Source: Candidatus Moanabacter tarae | GTDB taxonomy: Bacteria; Verrucomicrobiota; Verrucomicrobiia; Opitutales; UBA2987 | DNA length: 64,000 nt | NCBI GenBank assembly: GCA_003226295.1 | Contig: CP029803.1 | Coordinates: 1 to 64,000, forward strand | Direction: 5' to 3' | Part shown: positions 1 through 53,137 of the stretch, piece after piece | Layout: each line of letters begins with the position of its first letter | How positions within the stretch are numbered: the first letter of the stretch is position 1 | Program-made: the position numbers and the translations under genes | Notes under the pieces: generated by a model | The model's input: the letters and a program-made list of their open reading frames with translations, nothing else | Told to the model about the DNA's origin: nothing | The model's database searches: none

Positions 1-1592
1 CTAAGTTCACTAATCTGTTGAGTACGTTGGTTACTTTCCTCGGAGTTTTGCTTATTGAGTTCAGTAAGGTTATCTACCTGAAGTCCTCGAGCTTTCCGAT
101 CGTCCTCAGCTTCTTTTAGGAGGAGGTTAAGTTCACTAATCTGTTGAGAGCGTTGGTTACTTTCCTCGGAGTTTTGCTTATTGAGTTCAGTAAGGTTATC
201 TACCTGAAGTCCTCGAGCTTTCCGATCGTCCTCAGCTTCTTTTAGGAGGAGGTTAAGCTCATCGATTTGGCGCATGCGCTGGGCGTTTGCATCTGAATTC
301 TGTTTACTCAGTTCTTGTTTTTCAACTTTGAGATCCTTGAGTAGCTGAGTGAGTTTGTCGTTGTTTTCTAGACGTTTATTCCGGTCATTTTCGGACTTTT
401 GCAGAAGGAGATTTAGCTCATTAATTTGCTGAGTACGTTGGTTGCTCTCCTCGAAATTCTTCTTCCCCAATTCAGTAAGGTTATCTACCTGAAGTCCCCG
501 AGCTTTCCGATCATCCTCTGCTTCCCTGATCAGCTTATTGAGTTGCTCGATGTCACGAGTAAGGTCAATTCTATGTTGTTCGCTTTGAACGAGGACTTCG
601 GTAAGTCTTTCTATTTGTTTTCCGCGTTCTCGTCGATCCTCCTCAATGACACCAATGAATTTTCTTAGGCGTTCAGTTTCTGTATCCTTTTCCCCTTCGG
701 CATTGGAGGGAGGAATCTTAGAAAAGTTATCCGCGAGGTCTTTGCTCCATCCATTCAGCATCTTAAGTGAGTGCCCCGTTTGTTCCCAGAGTTCTAATGC
801 CTTTTCGGCTAGGAGTGGCGACGTTAATTCTGATAGTTCCGGATTGCTTAACTCCTTGTACAAGGTGCCCGCAAGGACATGAAGGGCCCCTGGTGTGAGG
901 TTGATCCCACTATACTTTTCGGCCACTTTCCTTATCTCTTCAAATCGGGCCCATCCCCCTTGGGCAGATTTTGTCTCTTCGTACTCCCTAAGCGTAGCAA
1001 TCGGTTTATTGATAAGAAGGGGTTCGCCAAGATCGGCTAACCGAATCCAAAGATCGGTATCGAGGGCATAGTGCAAGCCCGGGTCTAGTTGATTTCCAAT
1101 GGCTTTGAACTTACTTCGATTGATAAAAGTTGCGGGTTGTAGGATTTCATTCTCTCCGTACTTGAGAGCTTCTTTAGATATGTGGAAGCCTTTTGGATAA
1201 AAAAGCTTCCGATCTTTTCCGGTTTCATTCGATCGGTACCCATTGCCGGCGTAGAAGGGTCGATCGGGTGCCTGAGCGAATGCTTTTTTAATAGTTTCAA
1301 AGGCTTTCGGTTCAAAAAAGTCGTCGCAGTTCAGCCACGAAACGAGTGTGCCCCTGGCAAGAGAGAGACCCTTGTTCACTGCGTCTGATTGTCCATTGTC
1401 CGGTTCAGAAATAAAGTGCGAAAAGTGTTTCTGGTAGGTCTCCAGAATGTTCATCACTTCTTCACCTGATCCGCCATCGACAACGATCAACTCCCAGCTC
1501 GGTTCAGATTGAGATATAATACTTTTCAGACAGTGATCCAAAAAGCGAGGCTGGTTTAGACTCGGGACAATAATGGAAAAGAACTTAGGCAT
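1..1592 (-). CDS. Family 2 glycosyltransferase with long coiled-coil C-terminal tail (partial)
   Basis: Open reading frame on the minus strand, ATG at 1590-1592, still open at base 1, so the C-terminus lies outside the window; 530 residues are visible. The first ~230 residues are a GT-A glycosyltransferase: it starts with a FSIIVPSLNQ strand, has a VDGGS loop near residue 40, EPDNGQSDAVNKG near 63-75 and a metal-binding NCDD at 88-91. It probably transfers a sugar from a nucleotide sugar in surface polysaccharide synthesis. From about residue 300 onward it becomes a heptad-rich, highly charged coiled coil (repeated EDDRKARGLQVDNLTEL). The last 84 visible residues are two copies of a 42-residue unit encoded by nearly identical 126-bp repeats. 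The acceptor and sugar cannot be told. Confidence 0.85.
   Translation of the reverse strand, partial: MPKFFSIIVPSLNQPRFLDHCLKSIISQSEPSWELIVVDGGSGEEVMNILETYQKHFSHFISEPDNGQSDAVNKGLSLARGTLVSWLNCDDFFEPKAFETIKKAFAQAPDRPFYAGNGYRSNETGKDRKLFYPKGFHISKEALKYGENEILQPATFINRSKFKAIGNQLDPGLHYALDTDLWIRLADLGEPLLINKPIATLREYEETKSAQGGWARFEEIRKVAEKYSGINLTPGALHVLAGTLYKELSNPELSELTSPLLAEKALELWEQTGHSLKMLNGWSKDLADNFSKIPPSNAEGEKDTETERLRKFIGVIEEDRRERGKQIERLTEVLVQSEQHRIDLTRDIEQLNKLIREAEDDRKARGLQVDNLTELGKKNFEESNQRTQQINELNLLLQKSENDRNKRLENNDKLTQLLKDLKVEKQELSKQNSDANAQRMRQIDELNLLLKEAEDDRKARGLQVDNLTELNKQNSEESNQRSQQISELNLLLKEAEDDRKARGLQVDNLTELNKQNSEESNQRTQQISEL
3..254. repeat. Tandem 126-bp repeat inside the glycosyltransferase coiled coil
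   Basis: Two head-to-tail copies (about 3-128 and 129-254) differ at only two bases that I can see, near the gagtacg/gagagcg position. More diverged copies follow, with spacings of 159 and 117 bp (aagctc/tagctc landmarks at 257, 416, 533). 126 bp equals 42 codons, which is six heptads, so gain or loss of a unit keeps both reading frame and coiled-coil register. The array may continue beyond base 1. Confidence 0.85.
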
Positions 1593-9030: not shown

Positions 9031-9419
9031 TTTCGTGGAAACGGAAGCCCTCTCCTGCTAATTTGAAACAGGATCTAAAGTTTTCGTCGCGGGTTGGATC
9101 AATTCCGGCTGAAAGCTCTTAGTTGACAGAAGTCTAATTCTTCCGCGCAATTGAAGCTTGAAGACGGTATTTGCTTGTCCTGGCCTCTCTAGCAGAATGG
9201 GCGTATGCCAGGACTAATGGGTGAACATGTCTCCAGGGCCTGGCTGTAGAGCATTCTGGAATATAGGCATAGATTAACAATATAGATTGAAGATCGAATT
9301 CCAGTCCATAGTATATTGGTCTTTCGAACGTGAATAGGAGAATCCCATGTTCGACTCATCAATCTGAATCAGATTCACCGGTTGCGATGTCCCATATAAA
9401 TACGAAAGGAGCGTCATCT
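9031..9419. other. 389-bp leader region of the first transporter operon, with inverted repeats
   Basis: No gene is seen here. Three inverted-repeat elements cluster near 9177-9258: GTCCTGGC (9177-9184) pairs with GCCAGGAC (9207-9214), CCAGGGCCTGG (9233-9243) is itself a near palindrome, and CAGAATG (9193-9199) can pair with CATTCTG (9252-9258). The pairings compete with one another, so a regulated leader RNA or an operator cluster is conceivable. In-frame start codons at 9330 (GTG) and 9387 (ATG) lie in this stretch but lack a ribosome-binding site. Confidence 0.4.
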
Positions 9420-9422
9420 GTG
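9405..9422 (+). promoter_or_regulatory. Ribosome-binding site deciding the start of the fused transporter gene
   Basis: AAAGGAG at 9405-9411 sits 8 bases before GTG 9420-9422. The upstream in-frame candidates (GTG 9330, ATG 9387) have none. From the GTG the protein begins directly with its membrane anchor (VSRFFLKLLFAFSSLF). Confidence 0.7.
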
Positions 9423-12400
9423 TCTCGCTTCTTCCTCAAGCTCCTTTTTGCCTTCAGCAGTTTGTTTGTCTTTCTCGCGGTTTGGGCTCTCGGATTGAAA
9501 CCTAAGGTCCATGATGAAGAGATAGTCGTTGATCCGGATGAGGCGGCTGAAGTGAAAAGAATGCGGGATTCTCGAATCGATCCGGAAAACCCTGTGGTGA
9601 TCTGGCGCGAAGCAGACTACTCTGAAGGGAAGAGTGGGGCTTGGTGGCCAAAGGGTGAATCCCCAGTTCTTTCCGATCTTGTTGCCGAGGGTGTTTTGCC
9701 TCCCGTAGAGGAACGTGTCGGGTCGGAGCCGGTTGTCCTGGAGGGGCCGGAAGGGATAGGACGTTACGGTGGAGCACTGATAAAAGTAGAAAACGCAACC
9801 TCAGGGGAGAACGTCTCCCTGTCATCTTCTTACAGTGGATGTTCCCTCGTTCGTTGGTCTCCCTACGGATATCCCATCGTTCCCCATTTGGCGAAAAGCT
9901 GGGAAATTAAGGATCAATTTCGTGAATATGTTTTTCATCTGCGCAAAGGGGTTCGTTGGTCAGATGGACATCCTCTCACCACTGAGGACATCCTCTATTT
10001 CTGGGAGAATGAAGCCAACGAGCCAGCAATCAGCCAACGGTTAACCCATATTTTTCGACATATGGGGAAACCAGCAAAAATGGCTGCTATTGACGAATAC
10101 ACGCTCAAAATCCGATTTGAAGATCCATACCGGGATTTCCTGGATCGAATGGCTACTTCCCATGGCCAGCAATTGCTGCGATCTCCTGCACATTACCTCA
10201 AAAGCTATCATCCAATAATCGGTGATCACGAATTTATTGCCGAAGAAATGGTACGGGTCGGCATGCCTAGCCCTCAGATGCTCTATTCGTATGTTAAACG
10301 GTGGAATAATCCACATCATCCGCGGCTCTGGCCTTGGGTGTATCGTACATACAAGCCCAACCCTCCGTACGTATTTGTCAGGAATCCTTATTATTTCGCC
10401 GTTGATCCTGCGGGCAATCAGCTCCCTTACATTGACCGATGTATCCTACAGGAGCGCCAAGGGGATATGGCTGAAGTTGCCGCAATCAACGGGGAAATTA
10501 GTTTGTACATGGGGTTCTTATTCAGCGGATACAGTCTAGCTATGGAGCAGCGGGAGCAGGGTGGTTACGAGGTATACCATTGGGCCCGGCTAAACGGCAC
10601 CGATTTTTTGATTTTCCCCAATCAGAACCTGAAACCGCTTTCCAATGATCCTGAGGTCATTAGAAAGCGGGAACTGATCCAAAATAAGACCTTTCGCCAA
10701 GCCCTTTCGCTGGCCATGGATCGAGAATTTATCAGTAATGTAGAATACAGCGGACTTCTTCAACCGGCTCAATTAGCACCGGCTCCCGAATCTAACTTCT
10801 TTCATGAAGGTTTGGTGAATTCACACATTGAGCACAATCCCGTTCTGGCTGACAAACTGCTTGATCAGATAGATCTCGATCGGCGTGACGATGAAGGATA
10901 TCGGACTTTCCCGGACGGATCGAAGTTGCTCATTTACTTCGACTTTCTTTCCTATAACAAACGGGATTTGGCCGAGGTCGTGGCCGCACAATGGCGGGAA
11001 GTAGGGTTACGTGTTATTGCGCGATATCGAGCCCCACGCATCTGGTACACAGCCCTAGACGCCCTCGAGTTAGAGCTTTCAGCGGGAGGCATGAGTGGGA
11101 AGATAAACCTTTTCGTAGAGTCCAAAAATTACATCGCTACAAAAGAAGCGCACTGGGCCCGCGGTTATGGGAATTGGTATTCACAAGGCTCACTATTCGG
11201 AAATCCTGATGCTACCGGAAGAGGTGCAATCGAGCCTCCTGAGGATTCAATCTACCGTAAGATGATGTACCTGCATGCCCGGGCTTCTAGCGCCCCGTCT
11301 TTGAAAGAACAACAGGCTATTATGAGGGAGGCTCTCGATATTAGTGCTGAACATCTTTGGGTGATCAGTACCGGTTTCGCACCGCCACTTCTGATCATTG
11401 TGAAGGACGGCCTCAAGAATGTTCCTGAAGTCTGTGTTCTCAACCATGATTTTCAGGCGCCTTCCAGTGCTGGCATCGAAACCTTTTACTGGGAGGAGTT
11501 CGATCGCGATCCTAAAGTGGACGCAAATATTCAATCCGCCCTAAGCAAAATCACATCTAAATCGGGTGCTGATCCAGGTACAGGTATTTCTCAAGAAGAT
11601 GGGTCATTGGCAAAATTTATCCGCCTTGCTCTTTGGACGATCGTTGGTTTGGGACTACTTCTATTTGCAGTCAGACATCCCTTTGTTGGCCGAAGATTAA
11701 TCATCATGTTCCCAACTTTGGTGGTAGTTTCGATTTGTTCATTTACCATTATCGAGTTGCCACCAGGAGATTTCCTTACCTCTTATATGGCCCTCCTTGA
11801 GTTGGGAGGAGATGAAGTTGACCAGGACCAGATCGAAGATCTGAGGGTTATGTTCGAATTGGATAAACCAGTATTTGTCCGCTACCTAAAGTGGGCAGGT
11901 TTGCTTTGGTTTACTACATTCAAGGAGGGAGACCGAGGGTTACTTCAAGGGGACATGGGATTGTCTATGGAGTCGCAAAATCCAGTCAATGATATTGTCG
12001 GCGACCGACTTATTCTGACTCTTTGCATCAGTGTGTTAGCCGTTATTTTCACCTGGTCGTTAGCAATCCCCATCGGGGTATATTCTGCCGTCCGACAGTA
12101 CTCTCCGGGTGACTATTTCGCAACTTTCATTGGTTTCATAGGGATGTCCGTGCCCAATTTTCTCCTTGCTTTAATCCTTATGTATTTCAGCAACCGTTTC
12201 TTTGGAGTTCCCATTACGGGACTCTTTTCGGCTGAGTTTGTGGCACAGCCTTACTGGGATGGGCCCAAGGTGTTCGACTTGCTCAAACACATCTGGGTTC
12301 CGGTAATAGTGGTTGGCTTTCAAGGAACAGCAGCAATGATCCGAATCATGCGGGGTAATTTGCTCGACGAATTGAACAAACCGTATGTTACCACTGCATA

Positions 12401-12710
12401 TGCTAAAGGGGTACGTCCTCTTAAACTACTATTTAAATATCCCGTCCGGTTGGCCCTTAATCCCTTCGTTTCCGGACTTGGGACTCTTTTCCCTCAGCTC
12501 GTCTCAGGTGGAGCGATCGTTGCTCTCATTCTTAGCCTGCCCACAGTTGGGCCTATGCTTTTAAAAGCGCTGCAAATGGAAGATATGTATTTGGCCGGTT
12601 CCATGCTCATGCTTCTGAGTATCCTTGGGATTATAGGAACCCTGGTCAGTGACGTACTATTGCTTATTCTTGACCCAAGGATCCGGATGGAGGGGGGGGG
12701 CTCTCGATGA
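9420..12710 (+). CDS. Fused family 5 solute-binding protein and DppB-type ABC permease
   Basis: 1096 residues from GTG 9420. Order: an N-terminal membrane anchor or uncleaved signal (residues 1-26); a linker; a family 5 peptide/oligosaccharide-binding domain from about 115 (RYGGALIKVEN) to about 695, with the hallmark FHLRKGVRWSDGHPLTTEDI; one extra transmembrane helix near 730-753; then a whole DppB-like permease with RRLIIMFPTLVVVS, GDRLILTLCIS and an EAA loop (DELNKPYVTTAYAKGV) that contacts the ATPase. The extra helix brings the chain back to the cytoplasm before the permease starts, so the topology is consistent. DppB and the binding protein are normally separate proteins. The ligand is unknown: a peptide, opine or oligosaccharide is possible. 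Confidence 0.9.
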   Translation: MSRFFLKLLFAFSSLFVFLAVWALGLKPKVHDEEIVVDPDEAAEVKRMRDSRIDPENPVVIWREADYSEGKSGAWWPKGESPVLSDLVAEGVLPPVEERVGSEPVVLEGPEGIGRYGGALIKVENATSGENVSLSSSYSGCSLVRWSPYGYPIVPHLAKSWEIKDQFREYVFHLRKGVRWSDGHPLTTEDILYFWENEANEPAISQRLTHIFRHMGKPAKMAAIDEYTLKIRFEDPYRDFLDRMATSHGQQLLRSPAHYLKSYHPIIGDHEFIAEEMVRVGMPSPQMLYSYVKRWNNPHHPRLWPWVYRTYKPNPPYVFVRNPYYFAVDPAGNQLPYIDRCILQERQGDMAEVAAINGEISLYMGFLFSGYSLAMEQREQGGYEVYHWARLNGTDFLIFPNQNLKPLSNDPEVIRKRELIQNKTFRQALSLAMDREFISNVEYSGLLQPAQLAPAPESNFFHEGLVNSHIEHNPVLADKLLDQIDLDRRDDEGYRTFPDGSKLLIYFDFLSYNKRDLAEVVAAQWREVGLRVIARYRAPRIWYTALDALELELSAGGMSGKINLFVESKNYIATKEAHWARGYGNWYSQGSLFGNPDATGRGAIEPPEDSIYRKMMYLHARASSAPSLKEQQAIMREALDISAEHLWVISTGFAPPLLIIVKDGLKNVPEVCVLNHDFQAPSSAGIETFYWEEFDRDPKVDANIQSALSKITSKSGADPGTGISQEDGSLAKFIRLALWTIVGLGLLLFAVRHPFVGRRLIIMFPTLVVVSICSFTIIELPPGDFLTSYMALLELGGDEVDQDQIEDLRVMFELDKPVFVRYLKWAGLLWFTTFKEGDRGLLQGDMGLSMESQNPVNDIVGDRLILTLCISVLAVIFTWSLAIPIGVYSAVRQYSPGDYFATFIGFIGMSVPNFLLALILMYFSNRFFGVPITGLFSAEFVAQPYWDGPKVFDLLKHIWVPVIVVGFQGTAAMIRIMRGNLLDELNKPYVTTAYAKGVRPLKLLFKYPVRLALNPFVSGLGTLFPQLVSGGAIVALILSLPTVGPMLLKALQMEDMYLAGSMLMLLSILGIIGTLVSDVLLLILDPRIRMEGGGSR

Positions 12711-15979: not shown

Positions 15980-16049
15980 GGGGTGACTTCTCGGAGTACG
16001 TATTGGTTTTTCAGTAGAATTGATCTTACTGGAGTCGGATAGAATCTCA

Positions 16050-19000
16050 ATGATTAGAAGAAAACTTAGGGCGTATCTCGAGACGGGTTTTGTTTTGCTT
16101 CTTTTCGTCGCATCATGGGTTTTGTTGGCGACACTTTTTTCTATAGGAGGAAATAAGGGAGCTCCACCTCTAGAAGACCTGTCGAGTAACGGGTGGGAGG
16201 CATCAGGTCTCGATCAAGTTGCTCAAGATAAGGGTCCTGTGATTTGGCAGGATGTAGACTATACCCTAGGGTCGAATGCAGATTGGTATCCGAGAAACGA
16301 GTCACCCCTGCTCGCGGAGCTTGTGGCTCGGGGTGAACTCCCCCATGTCGACGAGCGAGTAGGTGAAGAGCCGGTAGTTCTCAAAGGAGTCGAAGGTATT
16401 GGAAAATACGGAGGAACTTGGTACTCGGCAAGCACCAGCTTCAGGCGTATTGCAGGAATGTTGGAGGATACAATGTGTGGGCCCAATCTCTTGCGTTGGT
16501 CACCTATGGGTTATCCGTTAGTGCCTCATATTGCGAAGAAGGTGGAGGTAAATGATGGCAATCGGGAGTACATTATTCACCTGAGAAAGGGGATGCGGTG
16601 GTCGGATGGGCATCCCTACACAGCCGACGATATTCTCTTCTTTGTTGATCGGGAAGCGTATGAACCGGAAGTAGGAATGCAAAATTCTGCTCAGAACCTT
16701 CTCATTTATAGGGGGAAAAGAGCGGAGGTTGAAAAATTGGACGACCTTAAGGTGAGAATCAGATTTGATGCTCCTAATGGGCTCTTTAGGGAACGCCTGG
16801 CTACATGGAGAGGGCTTCCGTTTTGCAATACTCCTGCCCATTATCTTAAGCAATACCATCCCGTAGACGGGAATGCAAAGGTGATTGAGACAACTATGAA
16901 GAGGTATGGTATGCCGAGTCGTCGAGCGCTCTACTTTTTCATGAAAGATCCCCATAACACGGAACACCCTCGCTTGTGGCCATGGCTCTTCCGGGGCTAC
17001 AAAGCTAATCCTCCACTGTCCTTTGTGCGAAATCCATACTATTTTGCGGTCGATACGAATGGAAATCAGCTCCCCTATATCGATCGTCTTTTCTTTGATC
17101 AGAAACAGAAGGATCTAATTGGCGTAGCAGCTGCTCATGGTGAGTTCTCGTACCAGTCAACTAATATAGGATTTGGCCAATTTACTCTCCTTATGTCGGA
17201 TAGAAACCGTGGGGGTTACAAAGTTCGACAATGGTTTTCCACGGCTGGAGGCTCTTTTGTAATCTGCTTTAATTTGAATCATCGGATTGAGGAATCTAAG
17301 CCTGAGTCTCGGTTCAAGAAGAAGTATCTCAATAATAAGATCTTCAGAAGGGCACTGTCCGTAGCCATAAATAGGCCGGCGATTATTCATTCCCTTTATG
17401 CTGGGATCACTGAACCTTCACAAGCTGCGCCTCCTCCCGACTCACCGTTCTTCGAGCCTTCTCTTAACCACGCCTTCATAAAATATGATCCATCCGTTGC
17501 TAATCGGTTACTTGACGAAATTGGTCTGGATAAGAGGGACGTCGATGGTTTCCGTACCTTTCCTGATGGTTCATCGATGCATTTTTTTCTTGATTCCCCT
17601 GATCATGCCGCTTTCCCGCGCGGTCTCCTGGAATTCGTAGCGGAAGACTGGGCCGAAGTAGGAGTCCGAGTTACTCCACGCCAGCGTGCCCAGCGACTCT
17701 TCACACTAACTTATTACTCCTCTCTTGGTGATATGCTCTTAGGCGGAGGACCAATTGATTTCCTGCCTCTGATTAATCCCCAGAATTACGTTCCAGTTTT
17801 GACCTCTAGCTTTGCACCAAATTACGGAAAGTGGATGGGCCGTGGTGGTCTCTTCGGAAGTGCCGAAGCACTACTTCCTGGAGCTGAAGAACCACCCCCG
17901 GGGCACCCGGTGAGAAGAGCTATGGAACTTTATGATGAAGCTCTTCAGAAAAGCAGCTTGCTTGAACAGGTCGAGATATTTCGGGACGTCCTAAAGATCG
18001 CGGCGGATAACCTGTGGTCGATCAATATCTCGACGCCTGCACCCGTATTGGCAGTGGTGAGTAATGACATGAAGAACGTACCTCACCGTATGCGTGCAGG
18101 CTGGGAATTTCTTTCTCCATCCAATGCAGGCGTTGAAACTTTCTATTTCTCTCGTTCCAGAGATTCCCCTGGGGCGATTAAGCAGATACAACAGGATATT
18201 TTGGATCCGACTCCGATCTACGGTAAAAGCGACGATAGCCAGACTAGAGTTGGTGATGGGGGAAGTAATGGCGGACGCATCATCGCATGGATAATTAAAT
18301 TCCTCTTTATTACTATCATTGCAGGATTTGTATTGATGGTCTGCTTCCGTCATCCATTTGTTGTGCGACGGCTCGCCCTCATAGTGCCGACTTTATTGGT
18401 TATATCGGTTTTGATCTTCGTTGTTATTGAGCTCCCACCTGGGGATCTCCTCGATACCTATATCGCCAATGTTGAGGAATCGGGTCGGGTTACAGGAGAA
18501 CAGGAAATTCAGGACATAAAAGAGATGTTTCTTTTAGATCAGCCCGCCTATTATCGCTATTTGCACTGGTTTGGATTTCGTTGGTTCCTCACGTTTAAAG
18601 GTGAAGATCGAGGTCTTCTTCAGGGAAATCTGGGACGGTCTATGTACAATTTCTCCTCCGTTAACGACCTCGTGGGCGATCGCCTGCTCCTAACCCTCTG
18701 CATCGGCTTGAGTACTGTGCTCTTTACTTGGTTAATGGCGCTTCCAATCGGAACCTATTCAGCGGTACGCCAGTATTCTTTAGGAGACTATTTTGCATCA
18801 CTGATCGTATTTTTTGGCATGTCTATGCCCAACTTTCTCCTCGCCCTTCTTCTTATGTACGCCGGAACCAAATTTTTTGGAATTCAGGTCACAGGGCTCT
18901 TCTCTCCGGAATTTGCCGGTCAACCGGAATGGACAATCTCCAAGGCGAAAGATCTCCTTATGCACCTTTGGCTCCCTGTGCTCGTGGTTGGTATCGGGGG

Positions 19001-19385
19001 AACAGGACAAATGATTCGAATAATGCGAGCTAATCTACTCGATGAGCTGAAAAAACCCTATGTTATGACAGCCCGTGCCAAGGGGGTTCGTCCCATAAAG
19101 TTGATTCTCAAATATCCAGTACGGCTCGCTCTAAATCCTTTTGTTTCCGGGCTAGGAACGCTTTTCCCTCAACTGATCTCTGGAGGGACTATCGTCGCTC
19201 TTGTTTTAAGCCTTCCCACCGTTGGACCGTTGTTGTTGGAAGGCCTCATGCGGGAGGATATGTATCTTGCTGGTTCAATGCTCTTGATTCTTAGTTTGTT
19301 GTCTGTGGTAGGTACACTTATCAGTGACTTGCTGCTCTTGGTTCTTGATCCCCGAATACGTATGGAGGAGGCCGGCTCGCGATGA
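16050..19385 (+). CDS. Second fused family 5 solute-binding protein and DppB-type permease
   Basis: 1111 residues from ATG 16050; an upstream in-frame TTG at 16020 is the other option. It has the same layout as the protein at 9420: an N-terminal hydrophobic anchor (VLLLFVASWVLLATLF), a family 5 binding domain (IIHLRKGMRWSDGHPYTADDI; YFAVDTNGNQLPYIDRLFF), an additional transmembrane helix near residue 745-770, and a permease with EAA loop DELKKPYVMTARAKGV. The binding halves have diverged more than the permease halves, whose helices and EAA loop are close to identical in pattern, suggesting the same ATPase but a different ligand. It is followed by a micro-ORF and a DppC gene. Confidence 0.9.
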   Translation: MIRRKLRAYLETGFVLLLFVASWVLLATLFSIGGNKGAPPLEDLSSNGWEASGLDQVAQDKGPVIWQDVDYTLGSNADWYPRNESPLLAELVARGELPHVDERVGEEPVVLKGVEGIGKYGGTWYSASTSFRRIAGMLEDTMCGPNLLRWSPMGYPLVPHIAKKVEVNDGNREYIIHLRKGMRWSDGHPYTADDILFFVDREAYEPEVGMQNSAQNLLIYRGKRAEVEKLDDLKVRIRFDAPNGLFRERLATWRGLPFCNTPAHYLKQYHPVDGNAKVIETTMKRYGMPSRRALYFFMKDPHNTEHPRLWPWLFRGYKANPPLSFVRNPYYFAVDTNGNQLPYIDRLFFDQKQKDLIGVAAAHGEFSYQSTNIGFGQFTLLMSDRNRGGYKVRQWFSTAGGSFVICFNLNHRIEESKPESRFKKKYLNNKIFRRALSVAINRPAIIHSLYAGITEPSQAAPPPDSPFFEPSLNHAFIKYDPSVANRLLDEIGLDKRDVDGFRTFPDGSSMHFFLDSPDHAAFPRGLLEFVAEDWAEVGVRVTPRQRAQRLFTLTYYSSLGDMLLGGGPIDFLPLINPQNYVPVLTSSFAPNYGKWMGRGGLFGSAEALLPGAEEPPPGHPVRRAMELYDEALQKSSLLEQVEIFRDVLKIAADNLWSINISTPAPVLAVVSNDMKNVPHRMRAGWEFLSPSNAGVETFYFSRSRDSPGAIKQIQQDILDPTPIYGKSDDSQTRVGDGGSNGGRIIAWIIKFLFITIIAGFVLMVCFRHPFVVRRLALIVPTLLVISVLIFVVIELPPGDLLDTYIANVEESGRVTGEQEIQDIKEMFLLDQPAYYRYLHWFGFRWFLTFKGEDRGLLQGNLGRSMYNFSSVNDLVGDRLLLTLCIGLSTVLFTWLMALPIGTYSAVRQYSLGDYFASLIVFFGMSMPNFLLALLLMYAGTKFFGIQVTGLFSPEFAGQPEWTISKAKDLLMHLWLPVLVVGIGGTGQMIRIMRANLLDELKKPYVMTARAKGVRPIKLILKYPVRLALNPFVSGLGTLFPQLISGGTIVALVLSLPTVGPLLLEGLMREDMYLAGSMLLILSLLSVVGTLISDLLLLVLDPRIRMEEAGSR

Positions 19386-24042: not shown

Positions 24043-25197
24043 TCACTCATCCACCAAGTTATCGTTGATATAGTCCCAATTAAATTCCATTCCTAGACCC
24101 GGAGTTTGCGGTAGGTGGACATAGCCTTCGGCATCCATTGGGTCGCAGGGATTAAGAAGGTAGGAAGGCGTTTCATCGTAATCCTCTCCGGGGGTAAGCA
24201 GCCCTCGCTCAAAGAATTCACACAGTTCATTTGTGGTTGTTCCCAGGATCTGGGAGTTCGCAAAGCCGCCGACATGAATTTCACAAGGGATGCCAAACCC
24301 TTCATACATCGCAACCGCCTTCTTACAGCCGGTGATACCACCGTAGTTGACATCAATGCGGCCAATATCAGTTGCCTCTTGCAGGGCCCACTCGGCGCGA
24401 CTGTAGTAACTACCGGTCGCATGTTCGGGCCCACATATATTAATGTCTAGCTCCCGACACAACCTTCTATAAGGCTCTAATCTGCGTTCATCCATTGGAT
24501 GCTCGAGCCAGTAAAAATCAAGCTTTTCCAGCTCACGCCCAACGTAGAGCGATTCCTCATAGGTGTAGATGCCCCAAGGATCTAGCATAAGCGTCATATC
24601 ATCACCCACGGCCTCTCGAACCGCCTTGCATACGGCCACATCTTCTTTTGGAAAGGCAGGCAACCCAGGTGCGGGTTGCTTAGTATGTGGATTCCAGTAG
24701 ATATAGGAATGAATCTTGTAGGCTTGGTAACCTCGTTGCTGGCATTCCAAAGCGTAATTAGCGTAGAGTTCCGGCGATCCCAGATTGGGAGCGGTGCTGG
24801 CATAGGCTTTGACCTTTTCCCTAGCACCCCCTAGCAACTTGGAAACAGGTAGGCCTGTCATGCGCCCAAGCAGGTCCCAAAGAGCACTGTCGACGCATCC
24901 CTGAAGCCCCTCGGAAATGCCCTTGTGTTTCATCATCCATTGCCAAATCCGCTCCCGGTCCATAGGGTTTTCTCCGAGGAGAAGGGGCTTTACTGTTCGT
25001 TCGACTTCAGCCGTTGATGCGCAATAGGAATAGCCATGGGGGCCTGTAGTGTATCCCTCAAAGCCCTCATCCGTAACAATCTTCATGATACGTTGCACCA
25101 TGTCGTATTCCTTGCCCACAACACCGTAACCCCACCTCGATGGATGGCTTTTTGAGGTTAAGCGGAATGATATGACTTCAATGTCTGTTATCTTCAT
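24043..25197 (-). CDS. Enolase-superfamily dehydratase, group similar to the 50.8-53.1 kb pair
   Basis: 384 residues. The barrel shows AYKIHSYIYWNPHTK (Lys-X-His), LMLDPWGIYTYEE (metal Asp), FYWLEHPMDE (metal Glu) and ICGPEHATG (third Glu), and CEIHVGGFANS supplies a candidate catalytic His. The same sequence pattern recurs in the tandem genes at 50790 and 52019 (KIHAYMYWDPFK, CGPEGVENL), so the three form a paralogous subgroup distinct from the KxK group. The capping domain at the N-terminus (VVGKEYDMVQRIMKIVTDEGFEGY) should set substrate specificity. Substrate unknown. Confidence 0.87.
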   Translation of the reverse strand: MKITDIEVISFRLTSKSHPSRWGYGVVGKEYDMVQRIMKIVTDEGFEGYTTGPHGYSYCASTAEVERTVKPLLLGENPMDRERIWQWMMKHKGISEGLQGCVDSALWDLLGRMTGLPVSKLLGGAREKVKAYASTAPNLGSPELYANYALECQQRGYQAYKIHSYIYWNPHTKQPAPGLPAFPKEDVAVCKAVREAVGDDMTLMLDPWGIYTYEESLYVGRELEKLDFYWLEHPMDERRLEPYRRLCRELDINICGPEHATGSYYSRAEWALQEATDIGRIDVNYGGITGCKKAVAMYEGFGIPCEIHVGGFANSQILGTTTNELCEFFERGLLTPGEDYDETPSYLLNPCDPMDAEGYVHLPQTPGLGMEFNWDYINDNLVDE

Positions 25198-50771: not shown

Positions 50772-51641
50772 TAAATTTTAGGGGTTTGGCTAGACCCTGT
50801 TATTCTCGATATAGTCCCAATCGATTTCAAAGCCGAGACCGGGTTTTTGGGGAATGAGAACATTACCCTGACCGTCTAAGGGATCGGCAATTTCCTTCAG
50901 ATAGGGCGGGGGCTCTTCGTAGGCTTCGTCGTGCCCGGGAGCGAAGAGGCCGCGCTCATAGTACTCTATGGTATTGTGATTAGTGGCACCGTAAATAGGC
51001 ATATTGCCCCAATTTCCCCCATGGATGGTGCATCGCATTCCGAAGGATTCGTAGAGGGCCACTGTTTTCATGCACCCTGTGATCCCGTTGTATTTGAATT
51101 CCGAGCGACCCATATCACAGGCTTTTCTTAAAATCCAAGAGGTACGGCTGTAGGGAAGGTTTTCGACTCCTTCCGGGCCGCATACTGGCACCCCGACATT
51201 TTCCACCAGCCGAATGTAGGGCTCAATGATATTCTCGGGCATTGGGCTCTCGAACCAAAAAAAGTTTAATTCTTCGATAGCTTTCCCCACGTAAAGAGCT
51301 TCCTCGTAGTTATAGATGCAGGCTTGATCGAGCATTAGAACAATGTCATCGCCCACGCGCTCCCTTACTGCCTTACAGACCTCTACATCCATTTTAGGGA
51401 AAGCGGGACTGCGAGGAGCGGGTTCCATCTTAAAGGGATCCCAATACATATAGGCGTGAATCTTGTAGGCCAGGTATCCTTTCTTAACACATTCTTCTGC
51501 GTGATCTGCAAATACTTCTGGTGATCCCATGTTGGGGAACGAGCTGGCGTAACACTTTATTTTGTCACGATAGCCTCCAAGAAGTTTGTGAACAGGTGTT
51601 TCGAAATAGCGACCGGCGAAATCCCAAAGCAGCATGTCTAA
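50772..51641. repeat. 870-bp direct repeat, copy 1 (second copy 52001-52870)
   Basis: From taaattttag just beyond the stop codon to gcatgtctaa in codons for the start of the barrel, the two copies appear identical across all parts I compared. Upstream of that point (toward the genes' 5' ends) they differ abruptly. The offset is 1229 bp. Confidence 0.85.
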
Positions 51642-51941
51642 CTCCGTGTTGCCCCGACTCTGGTGCCACAGCCACTCTCGATTCATAGGGTCTTCCCCAA
51701 TCGCTAGCTGGTTAATGTATTCTGGTAGATTCCCGTCATCGAAACCCATCCCTACGGTCTTGGAGCTAGGCCAGAACCCGCTGATCCCCGTATCGGTAAC
51801 CATTTCCAAGATGACTGTGTTGATCTCACGTGTCCCCATTTTGAGCATCTCGATGGGGTAGATCCAATAGCCGTACTTAAAATTATCGTACTGCCGGGTG
51901 GGGATTTTAAATTTGTGTGTTTTTATTTCTGTGATCTTCAT
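50790..51941 (-). CDS. Enolase-superfamily dehydratase, tandem copy 1
   Basis: 383 residues. Barrel motifs: AYKIHAYMYWDPFK (Lys-X-His), LMLDQACIYNYEE (metal Asp), FFWFESPMPEN (metal Glu) and VCGPEGVENL (third Glu). The 282 or so C-terminal residues are identical to those of the next gene (52019), while the N-terminal ~100 residues (capping domain, including IYPIEMLKMGTREINTVI) differ, with about half the positions identical by eye. The shared part is a near-exact 870-bp DNA repeat. The capping domain contributes the substrate-facing loops in this superfamily, so the two proteins may act on different substrates. Confidence 0.88.
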   Translation of the reverse strand: MKITEIKTHKFKIPTRQYDNFKYGYWIYPIEMLKMGTREINTVILEMVTDTGISGFWPSSKTVGMGFDDGNLPEYINQLAIGEDPMNREWLWHQSRGNTELDMLLWDFAGRYFETPVHKLLGGYRDKIKCYASSFPNMGSPEVFADHAEECVKKGYLAYKIHAYMYWDPFKMEPAPRSPAFPKMDVEVCKAVRERVGDDIVLMLDQACIYNYEEALYVGKAIEELNFFWFESPMPENIIEPYIRLVENVGVPVCGPEGVENLPYSRTSWILRKACDMGRSEFKYNGITGCMKTVALYESFGMRCTIHGGNWGNMPIYGATNHNTIEYYERGLFAPGHDEAYEEPPPYLKEIADPLDGQGNVLIPQKPGLGFEIDWDYIENNRV

Positions 51942-52000
51942 GGTATAGGAATCGGGTGTCTTTGGTCATCTAGATGGATGGCTCGGTATTTTGAAACCAC

Positions 52001-52870
52001 TAAATTTTAGGGGTTTGGCTAGACCCTGTTATTCTCGATATAGTCCCAATCGATTTCAAAGCCGAGACCGGGTTTTTGGGGAATGAGAACATTACCCTGA
52101 CCGTCTAAGGGATCGGCAATTTCCTTCAGATAGGGCGGGGGCTCTTCGTAGGCTTCGTCGTGCCCGGGAGCGAAGAGGCCGCGCTCATAGTACTCTATGG
52201 TATTGTGATTAGTGGCACCGTAAATAGGCATATTGCCCCAATTTCCCCCATGGATGGTGCATCGCATTCCGAAGGATTCGTAGAGGGCCACTGTTTTCAT
52301 GCACCCTGTGATCCCGTTGTATTTGAATTCCGAGCGACCCATATCACAGGCTTTTCTTAAAATCCAAGAGGTACGGCTGTAGGGAAGGTTTTCGACTCCT
52401 TCCGGGCCGCATACTGGCACCCCGACATTTTCCACCAGCCGAATGTAGGGCTCAATGATATTCTCGGGCATTGGGCTCTCGAACCAAAAAAAGTTTAATT
52501 CTTCGATAGCTTTCCCCACGTAAAGAGCTTCCTCGTAGTTATAGATGCAGGCTTGATCGAGCATTAGAACAATGTCATCGCCCACGCGCTCCCTTACTGC
52601 CTTACAGACCTCTACATCCATTTTAGGGAAAGCGGGACTGCGAGGAGCGGGTTCCATCTTAAAGGGATCCCAATACATATAGGCGTGAATCTTGTAGGCC
52701 AGGTATCCTTTCTTAACACATTCTTCTGCGTGATCTGCAAATACTTCTGGTGATCCCATGTTGGGGAACGAGCTGGCGTAACACTTTATTTTGTCACGAT
52801 AGCCTCCAAGAAGTTTGTGAACAGGTGTTTCGAAATAGCGACCGGCGAAATCCCAAAGCAGCATGTCTAA
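52001..52870. repeat. 870-bp direct repeat, copy 2
   Basis: Second copy of the repeat described at 50772-51641. It covers the 3' part of the gene at 52019 and 18 bp beyond its stop. Confidence 0.85.
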
Positions 52871-53137
52871 ATCCGAGTTTCCTCGACTCTGGTGCCACAG
52901 CCACTCTCGATTTATCGGGTCTTCCCCAATCGCTAGTTGGTTAATCCACGGAGTCAGGGGTGGACCCATCCAGTAGCCGCTGGTCCCAGTGTCAGTAACA
53001 AGTTCCTGGATCTGGACGGAGATCTCGCGCGGTTCAGACTGCAGCATCTCTATGGGATATGCACTGTAACCGTACTTCGAGGACATGCGCCGTGTTGTGG
53101 CGGTGAATTCGTGAGATTTGATCTCGGTAATTTTCAT
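52019..53137 (-). CDS. Enolase-superfamily dehydratase, tandem copy 2
   Basis: 372 residues. Same barrel as the gene at 50790 (KIHAYMYWDPFK, LMLDQACIYNYEE, FFWFESPMPEN, VCGPEGVENL) but a different N-terminal cap: YSAYPIEMLQSEPREISVQ and WMGPPLTPWINQLAIGEDP, shorter by about 11 residues in the loop before INQLAIGEDP. It is upstream of copy 1 and separated by 77 bp, so they are likely co-transcribed. Divergent from the cupin gene. Confidence 0.88.
   Translation of the reverse strand: MKITEIKSHEFTATTRRMSSKYGYSAYPIEMLQSEPREISVQIQELVTDTGTSGYWMGPPLTPWINQLAIGEDPINREWLWHQSRGNSDLDMLLWDFAGRYFETPVHKLLGGYRDKIKCYASSFPNMGSPEVFADHAEECVKKGYLAYKIHAYMYWDPFKMEPAPRSPAFPKMDVEVCKAVRERVGDDIVLMLDQACIYNYEEALYVGKAIEELNFFWFESPMPENIIEPYIRLVENVGVPVCGPEGVENLPYSRTSWILRKACDMGRSEFKYNGITGCMKTVALYESFGMRCTIHGGNWGNMPIYGATNHNTIEYYERGLFAPGHDEAYEEPPPYLKEIADPLDGQGNVLIPQKPGLGFEIDWDYIENNRV

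What the first reader, a model, noticed from the sequence alone, without database searches (positions are those of the whole stretch)
50772..52870. Tandem dehydratases with identical barrel DNA but different capping domains
The genes at 50790 and 52019 appear identical over 870 bp covering the catalytic barrel, then diverge sharply in the N-terminal cap (about half the residues the same). In this superfamily the cap contributes substrate specificity and the barrel supplies catalysis. The pattern fits gene conversion spreading one barrel between two caps, giving paired enzymes with different substrates. It also fits an assembly artefact.
Basis: partly seen in the sequence, partly recalled or inferred. 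Interest (0 to 1): 0.7.

Follow-up and report, generated by a model that had tools for sequence, protein, structure and literature searches.

The report
Tandem enolase-family genes, homogenised barrels
Two neighbouring sugar-acid-type enzyme genes in an uncultured ocean bacterium have very different front ends but letter-for-letter identical back ends, most likely because DNA copying between the neighbours kept the back ends alike, although the perfect identity may be exaggerated by the short-read assembly.

Summary
The repeat is real in the deposited sequence: 870 bp exact (50772-51641 = 52001-52870), then 75 bp at 91%, then caps at 57% DNA / 55% protein identity. The barrels show 0 synonymous differences in 283 codons; the caps are near saturation. 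Among 3,240 homologue pairs this is a unique outlier: caps this different normally go with barrels of about 72% identity (maximum 88%). The two caps are each other's closest relatives, so the genes are old tandem duplicates whose barrels were homogenised later, most simply by gene conversion. The genome matches "Candidatus Moanabacter tarae" (2,633,965 bp, one contig), a short-read metaSPAdes consensus with k at most 77. No read spans 870 bp, and the assembler merges near-identical copies. Three more tandem gene pairs in 35% of the genome show the same pattern: perfect cores of 811-1098 bp, differences only near one edge. So exact identity is not trustworthy. A simulation suggests merging alone does not make this edge clustering and puts true barrel divergence at a few percent, so real homogenisation is still favoured. 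Different substrates are plausible but untested. The paralogue at 24043 belongs to a different, SAR202-like clade.

The parts
50790..51941 (-). copy 1, enolase-superfamily (MR/MLE) gene, 383 aa; longer cap with an extra 11-residue loop
52019..53137 (-). copy 2, enolase-superfamily gene, 372 aa; shorter cap
50772..51641 (.). 870-bp exact repeat, copy 1 (barrel, residues 101-383, plus 18 bp past the stop)
52001..52870 (.). 870-bp exact repeat, copy 2
51642..51716 (.). transition zone, 7 differences in 75 bp to 52871-52945 (residues 76-100)
52871..52945 (.). transition zone of copy 2
51717..51941 (-). diverged cap of copy 1 (residues 1-75)
   Evidence: 55% aa identity to the copy 2 cap
52946..53137 (-). 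diverged cap of copy 2 (residues 1-64)
51942..52018 (.). 77-bp spacer between the tandem genes; no detectable similarity to the region upstream of copy 2

Best explanation
The two genes arose by an old tandem duplication of one enolase-superfamily enzyme. The N-terminal caps drifted apart to 55% identity. The 3' part encoding the barrel stayed alike because recombination between the adjacent copies (gene conversion) kept overwriting it, with tracts ending at different points: an older one near residue 76 and a younger one near residue 101. Conversion stops where the caps no longer share enough homology, so one catalytic barrel is maintained under two caps. Shown: sister caps, near-saturated synonymous divergence in caps, none in barrels, outlier status. 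Inferred: conversion as the mechanism, and different substrates. The last step to literally 100% identity may be the metaSPAdes consensus merging the few remaining differences.
For: Cap of copy 1 is 55% identical to cap of copy 2; neither cap exceeds 40% identity to any other sequence compared, and the cap tree groups them (support 0.925). In 3,240 pairs, all 30 others with barrels at or above 95% have caps at or above 72%, and 334 pairs with caps at 50-60% have mean barrel identity 72%, maximum 88%. Third-position identity 36% in caps, 76% in the transition zone, 100% in the core; synonymous differences 18/35, 4/22, 0/283. Pairs 2 and 3 elsewhere show the same edge-only divergence. Uniform divergence plus k=77 merging reproduces the edge clustering of pairs 1-3 in at most about 0.2% of simulations each, so a real core-to-edge gradient is favoured. 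Both proteins model as intact enolase folds (mean pLDDT 88 and 92).
Against: All data come from one short-read consensus assembly, and no read spans the repeat. No orthologue closer than about 51% was found, so conversion cannot be shown by comparison with a relative. Zero differences in 3,595 bp over four tandem cores is more perfect than I would expect from biology alone. The simulation is a simplified model of the assembler, not a run of it.
Confidence: 0.6

Rival explanations
1. Assembly artefact: two tandem paralogues with clearly different barrels were merged by metaSPAdes into one consensus barrel traversed twice as a graph loop, so the identity says little about the organism.
For: Illumina reads, metaSPAdes 3.7.0, k = 21-77; metaSPAdes collapses larger bulges than SPAdes and outputs consensus (PMC8021871). 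All four large repeats in 914 kb are tandem, with perfect cores and differences only where no shared run of 77 nt lies outside.
Against: Merging at k=77 needs shared 78-mers: at 8% divergence only about 10% of simulated pairs share any, and uniform divergence does not reproduce the observed edges. The junctions needed for the tandem loop must be present in reads (own knowledge of de Bruijn graphs).
Confidence: 0.2
2. Recent tandem duplication of one gene, followed by replacement of one copy's cap by recombination with a diverged relative.
For: Would also give identical barrels with different caps. Devosia/Kaistia homologues show cap and barrel trees that disagree, so caps can move separately in this family.
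Against: The two caps are each other's closest known relatives, and the three-step gradient 57/91/100% would need the donor to carry it already. No donor was found in the own genome or in the other genomes searched by protein.
Confidence: 0.12
3. Literal identity in the cell: a very recent conversion event copied 870 bp, and the assembly is right as printed (a stricter form of the best explanation).
For: Sequence as deposited; recent tandem duplication is frequent in this genome.
Against: Four of four cores are perfectly identical in the output of an assembler that masks small differences.
Confidence: 0.3

Closest known systems
Agrobacterium tumefaciens AGR_L_2751 (1RVK; 4HCH, titled D-glucarate dehydratase), enolase superfamily
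   Same: Best sequence match of both copies (E 1e-62 to 1e-65) and best fold match of copy 2 (TM 0.88); metal-ligand and Lys/His positions align
   Different: 36% identity in the structural alignment; shorter cap, missing residues after the WLWH helix, Glu281 where most homologues of this set have Asp; function of the pair unknown
Partial gene conversion / concerted evolution of prokaryotic paralogues (e.g. PMC6053082)
   Same: Paralogues kept alike, here at silent sites in one part of the gene and not in the other
   Different: The boundary lies near the cap/barrel domain border; no relative is available for the formal test; the assembly is a consensus
Enolase-superfamily paralogue expansions of SAR202 (PMC6946804, 4-75 per group I genome)
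   Same: About 64 MR_MLE genes in this 2.6-Mb genome; the paralogue at 24043 is 71% identical to a SAR202 protein
   Different: Host is a verrucomicrobium, not Chloroflexota; the pair itself has no close SAR202 relative

Membership tests
Enolase superfamily, mandelate-racemase-like | C-terminal barrel domain (PF13378) | tested here: met
   109 bits in both, cut-off 29.4
Enolase superfamily, mandelate-racemase-like | N-terminal capping domain (PF02746) | tested here: inconclusive
   Copy 1 21.7 bits against cut-off 22, copy 2 no match; both models have the three-strand plus helices cap
Enolase superfamily, mandelate-racemase-like | Three metal-binding acidic residues and barrel Lys and His | tested here: met
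   D205, E231, K160, H162 in 86/86, E257 in 84 of 86 (2 gaps), H307 in 83 of 86 (3 gaps); residue roles by own knowledge
Enolase superfamily, mandelate-racemase-like | Asp partner of the catalytic His (His-Asp dyad) | tested here: not met
   Glu281 in the pair; Asp in 77 of 86 sequences; a conservative change that does not exclude superfamily membership, since 1RVK itself has Gly aligned there (my alignment by eye); dyad assignment from own knowledge
Named dehydratases (gluconate/galactonate, arabinonate and others) | NCBIfam equivalog cut-off | tested here: not met
   Best 100.7 and 102.4 bits against cut-off 750
D-glucarate dehydratase of A. tumefaciens type | Activity on the substrate | not testable with these tools
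   needs enzyme assay
Gene conversion between paralogues | Silent-site identity confined to a tract with sharp ends | tested here: met
   0/283 against 18/35 synonymous differences, on a consensus assembly
Gene conversion between paralogues | Orthologues in a relative show that the duplication predates the identity | tested here: inconclusive
   No orthologue found; cap divergence and cap tree used instead

The most novel reading that the evidence does not exclude
In this genome, which carries about 64 enolase-superfamily genes, tandem duplication plus recurrent conversion works as a diversification engine: catalytic barrels are kept common while caps diverge, producing enzyme pairs with shared chemistry and new substrates.
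Probability: 0.1. Interest if true: 0.65.

Novelty: new member of a known kind. Interest (0 to 1): 0.33.

Why it matters
If the reads support it, this is a natural cap-diversification experiment on one barrel in a superfamily used to study how substrate specificity evolves. It is also a caution: perfect identity between tandem paralogues in metaSPAdes genomes should be checked on reads before it is read as gene conversion.

Tried and rejected
Looked for close orthologues in 52 relatives, 388 genomes of the phylum, 85 of the phylum of L014 (Poribacteria), 393 of the class of L020 (SAR202), GTDB contigs and viral contigs: nothing above about 51% identity over most of the length. The single GTDB-contig scan used patterns shared with the paralogues, so closer relatives of the pair could have been missed there. 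Chance similarity is rejected. Purifying selection on the barrel is rejected because silent sites are identical. Collapse at small k (47 or less) is unlikely because a run of 48 nt outside a core was kept. A recent plain duplication is rejected for pair 1 because the caps are near-saturated. The metaSPAdes paper itself was not held. A literature search for the cap loops found nothing held.

Full report
Observation. The window holds two tandem minus-strand genes, 50790-51941 (383 aa) and 52019-53137 (372 aa). They share an exact 870-bp repeat, 50772-51641 and 52001-52870, offset 1229. It covers residues 101-383 of copy 1 plus 18 bp after the stop. Then come 75 bp with 7 differences, then caps at 57% nt and 55% aa identity. 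Flanks beyond the genes show no similarity.

What the genes are. Both carry the enolase-superfamily barrel domain; the cap domain is only marginally recognised in copy 1 and not in copy 2. The best solved relative is the A. tumefaciens enzyme 1RVK/4HCH, also the best fold match of the copy 2 model. Predicted structures are confident (mean pLDDT 91.6 for copy 2; 88.4 for copy 1). The extra residues of copy 1 form a low-confidence loop at 62-70. Metal ligands and barrel Lys/His are conserved, but the pair has Glu at position 281 where 77 of 86 sequences have Asp. No NCBIfam equivalog cut-off is met, so "dehydratase" is only a likely chemistry and the substrate is unknown.

History. The caps are each other's nearest relatives (55% against at most 40% to any other; cap-tree support 0.925), so both descend from one duplication. 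Across 3,240 homologue pairs, caps at 50-60% identity go with barrels averaging 72% (maximum 88%), and the 30 other pairs with barrels at or above 95% have caps at or above 72%. In the barrel 0 of 283 shared-residue codons differ synonymously; in the cap 18 of 35; in the transition zone 4 of 22. Selection on protein sequence cannot do this. Homogenisation of the 3' part must be invoked, or merging by the assembler. The paralogue at 24043 is a different clade, 71% identical to a SAR202 protein and 47% to the pair.

Where the sequence comes from. The single contig of 2,633,965 bp has exactly the length of "Candidatus Moanabacter tarae", CP029803, assembled by metaSPAdes 3.7.0 from Illumina HiSeq reads with k-mers 21, 33, 55, 77 (PMC6256433); I take them to be the same. 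No short read spans 870 bp. metaSPAdes collapses small differences by bulge projection and reports consensus contigs (PMC8021871). A tandem repeat is a simple loop in the assembly graph, so the layout follows from junction reads even without spanning reads (own knowledge).

Genome-wide control. In 914 kb (35%) of the contig the only exact repeats of 50 bp or more are six tandem ones. Four are gene pairs: this one; enolase-superfamily genes at 790,308-792,654 (1098 bp core); short-chain dehydrogenases near 1,742,985 (811 bp); PhyH-family dioxygenases near 847,650 (816 bp). Cores total 3,595 bp with no difference. Differences lie only within 28-103 bp of one edge; for pairs 1-3 the chance of this under uniform scatter is below 1e-7. 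Both gene conversion and graph merging need homology on both sides, so both give this geometry.

Separating the two. In a simulation of k=77 merging with uniform divergence, the patterns of pairs 1-3 (no differences at one end, many at the other) arise in at most about 0.2% of runs at any divergence tested. At 8% divergence only about 10% of pairs share any 78-mer. So the cores were probably already within a few percent, and a real core-to-edge gradient exists. This is a model, not a rerun of the assembler. I conclude that homogenised barrels are likely, and literal identity is unproven.

Function. [quoted passage not shown] The diverged residues fall in that domain, including its loops. That two substrates are served is an inference.

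Supporting side observation. In Devosia/Kaistia homologues the caps of L050 and L060 group with L037/L039 (0.97) while the barrels group with L051/L053/L054/L055 (0.895), so cap and barrel can have separate histories elsewhere in this family.

Noticed in passing
G000:C1:790308-792654 (L091:6308-8654): Second tandem enolase-superfamily pair, unit 1201 bp, 1098 bp identical, 7 differences in the last 103 bp.
   Followed up: yes
L094:4986-6701 and L139:7654-9320: Two further tandem pairs (SDR, 811 bp core; PhyH, 816 bp core) with the same edge-only differences.
   Followed up: yes
whole genome G000: 66 MR_MLE_C matches (about 64 genes) in 2.6 Mb, a SAR202-like expansion in a verrucomicrobium; relatives searched have 0-23 (the latter used a stricter threshold and scored only 45 candidates in G000).
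   Followed up: partly
window 9330-12710 and 16020-19385: Two paralogous ORFs of about 1,120 aa fuse a family-5 solute-binding domain to an ABC permease, each followed by a second permease-like ORF.
   Followed up: partly
L045, L069: A Spirochaetaceae MAG from the same Tara run (ERR599156) carries relatives of these enzymes at about 45-50% identity.
   Followed up: no
L050, L060 against L037, L039, L051, L053-L055: Cap and barrel trees disagree in Devosia/Kaistia homologues, suggesting cap exchange.
   Followed up: partly
window 1-257: The contig starts in a 126-bp tandem repeat, as expected where a graph loop ends a contig.
   Followed up: no
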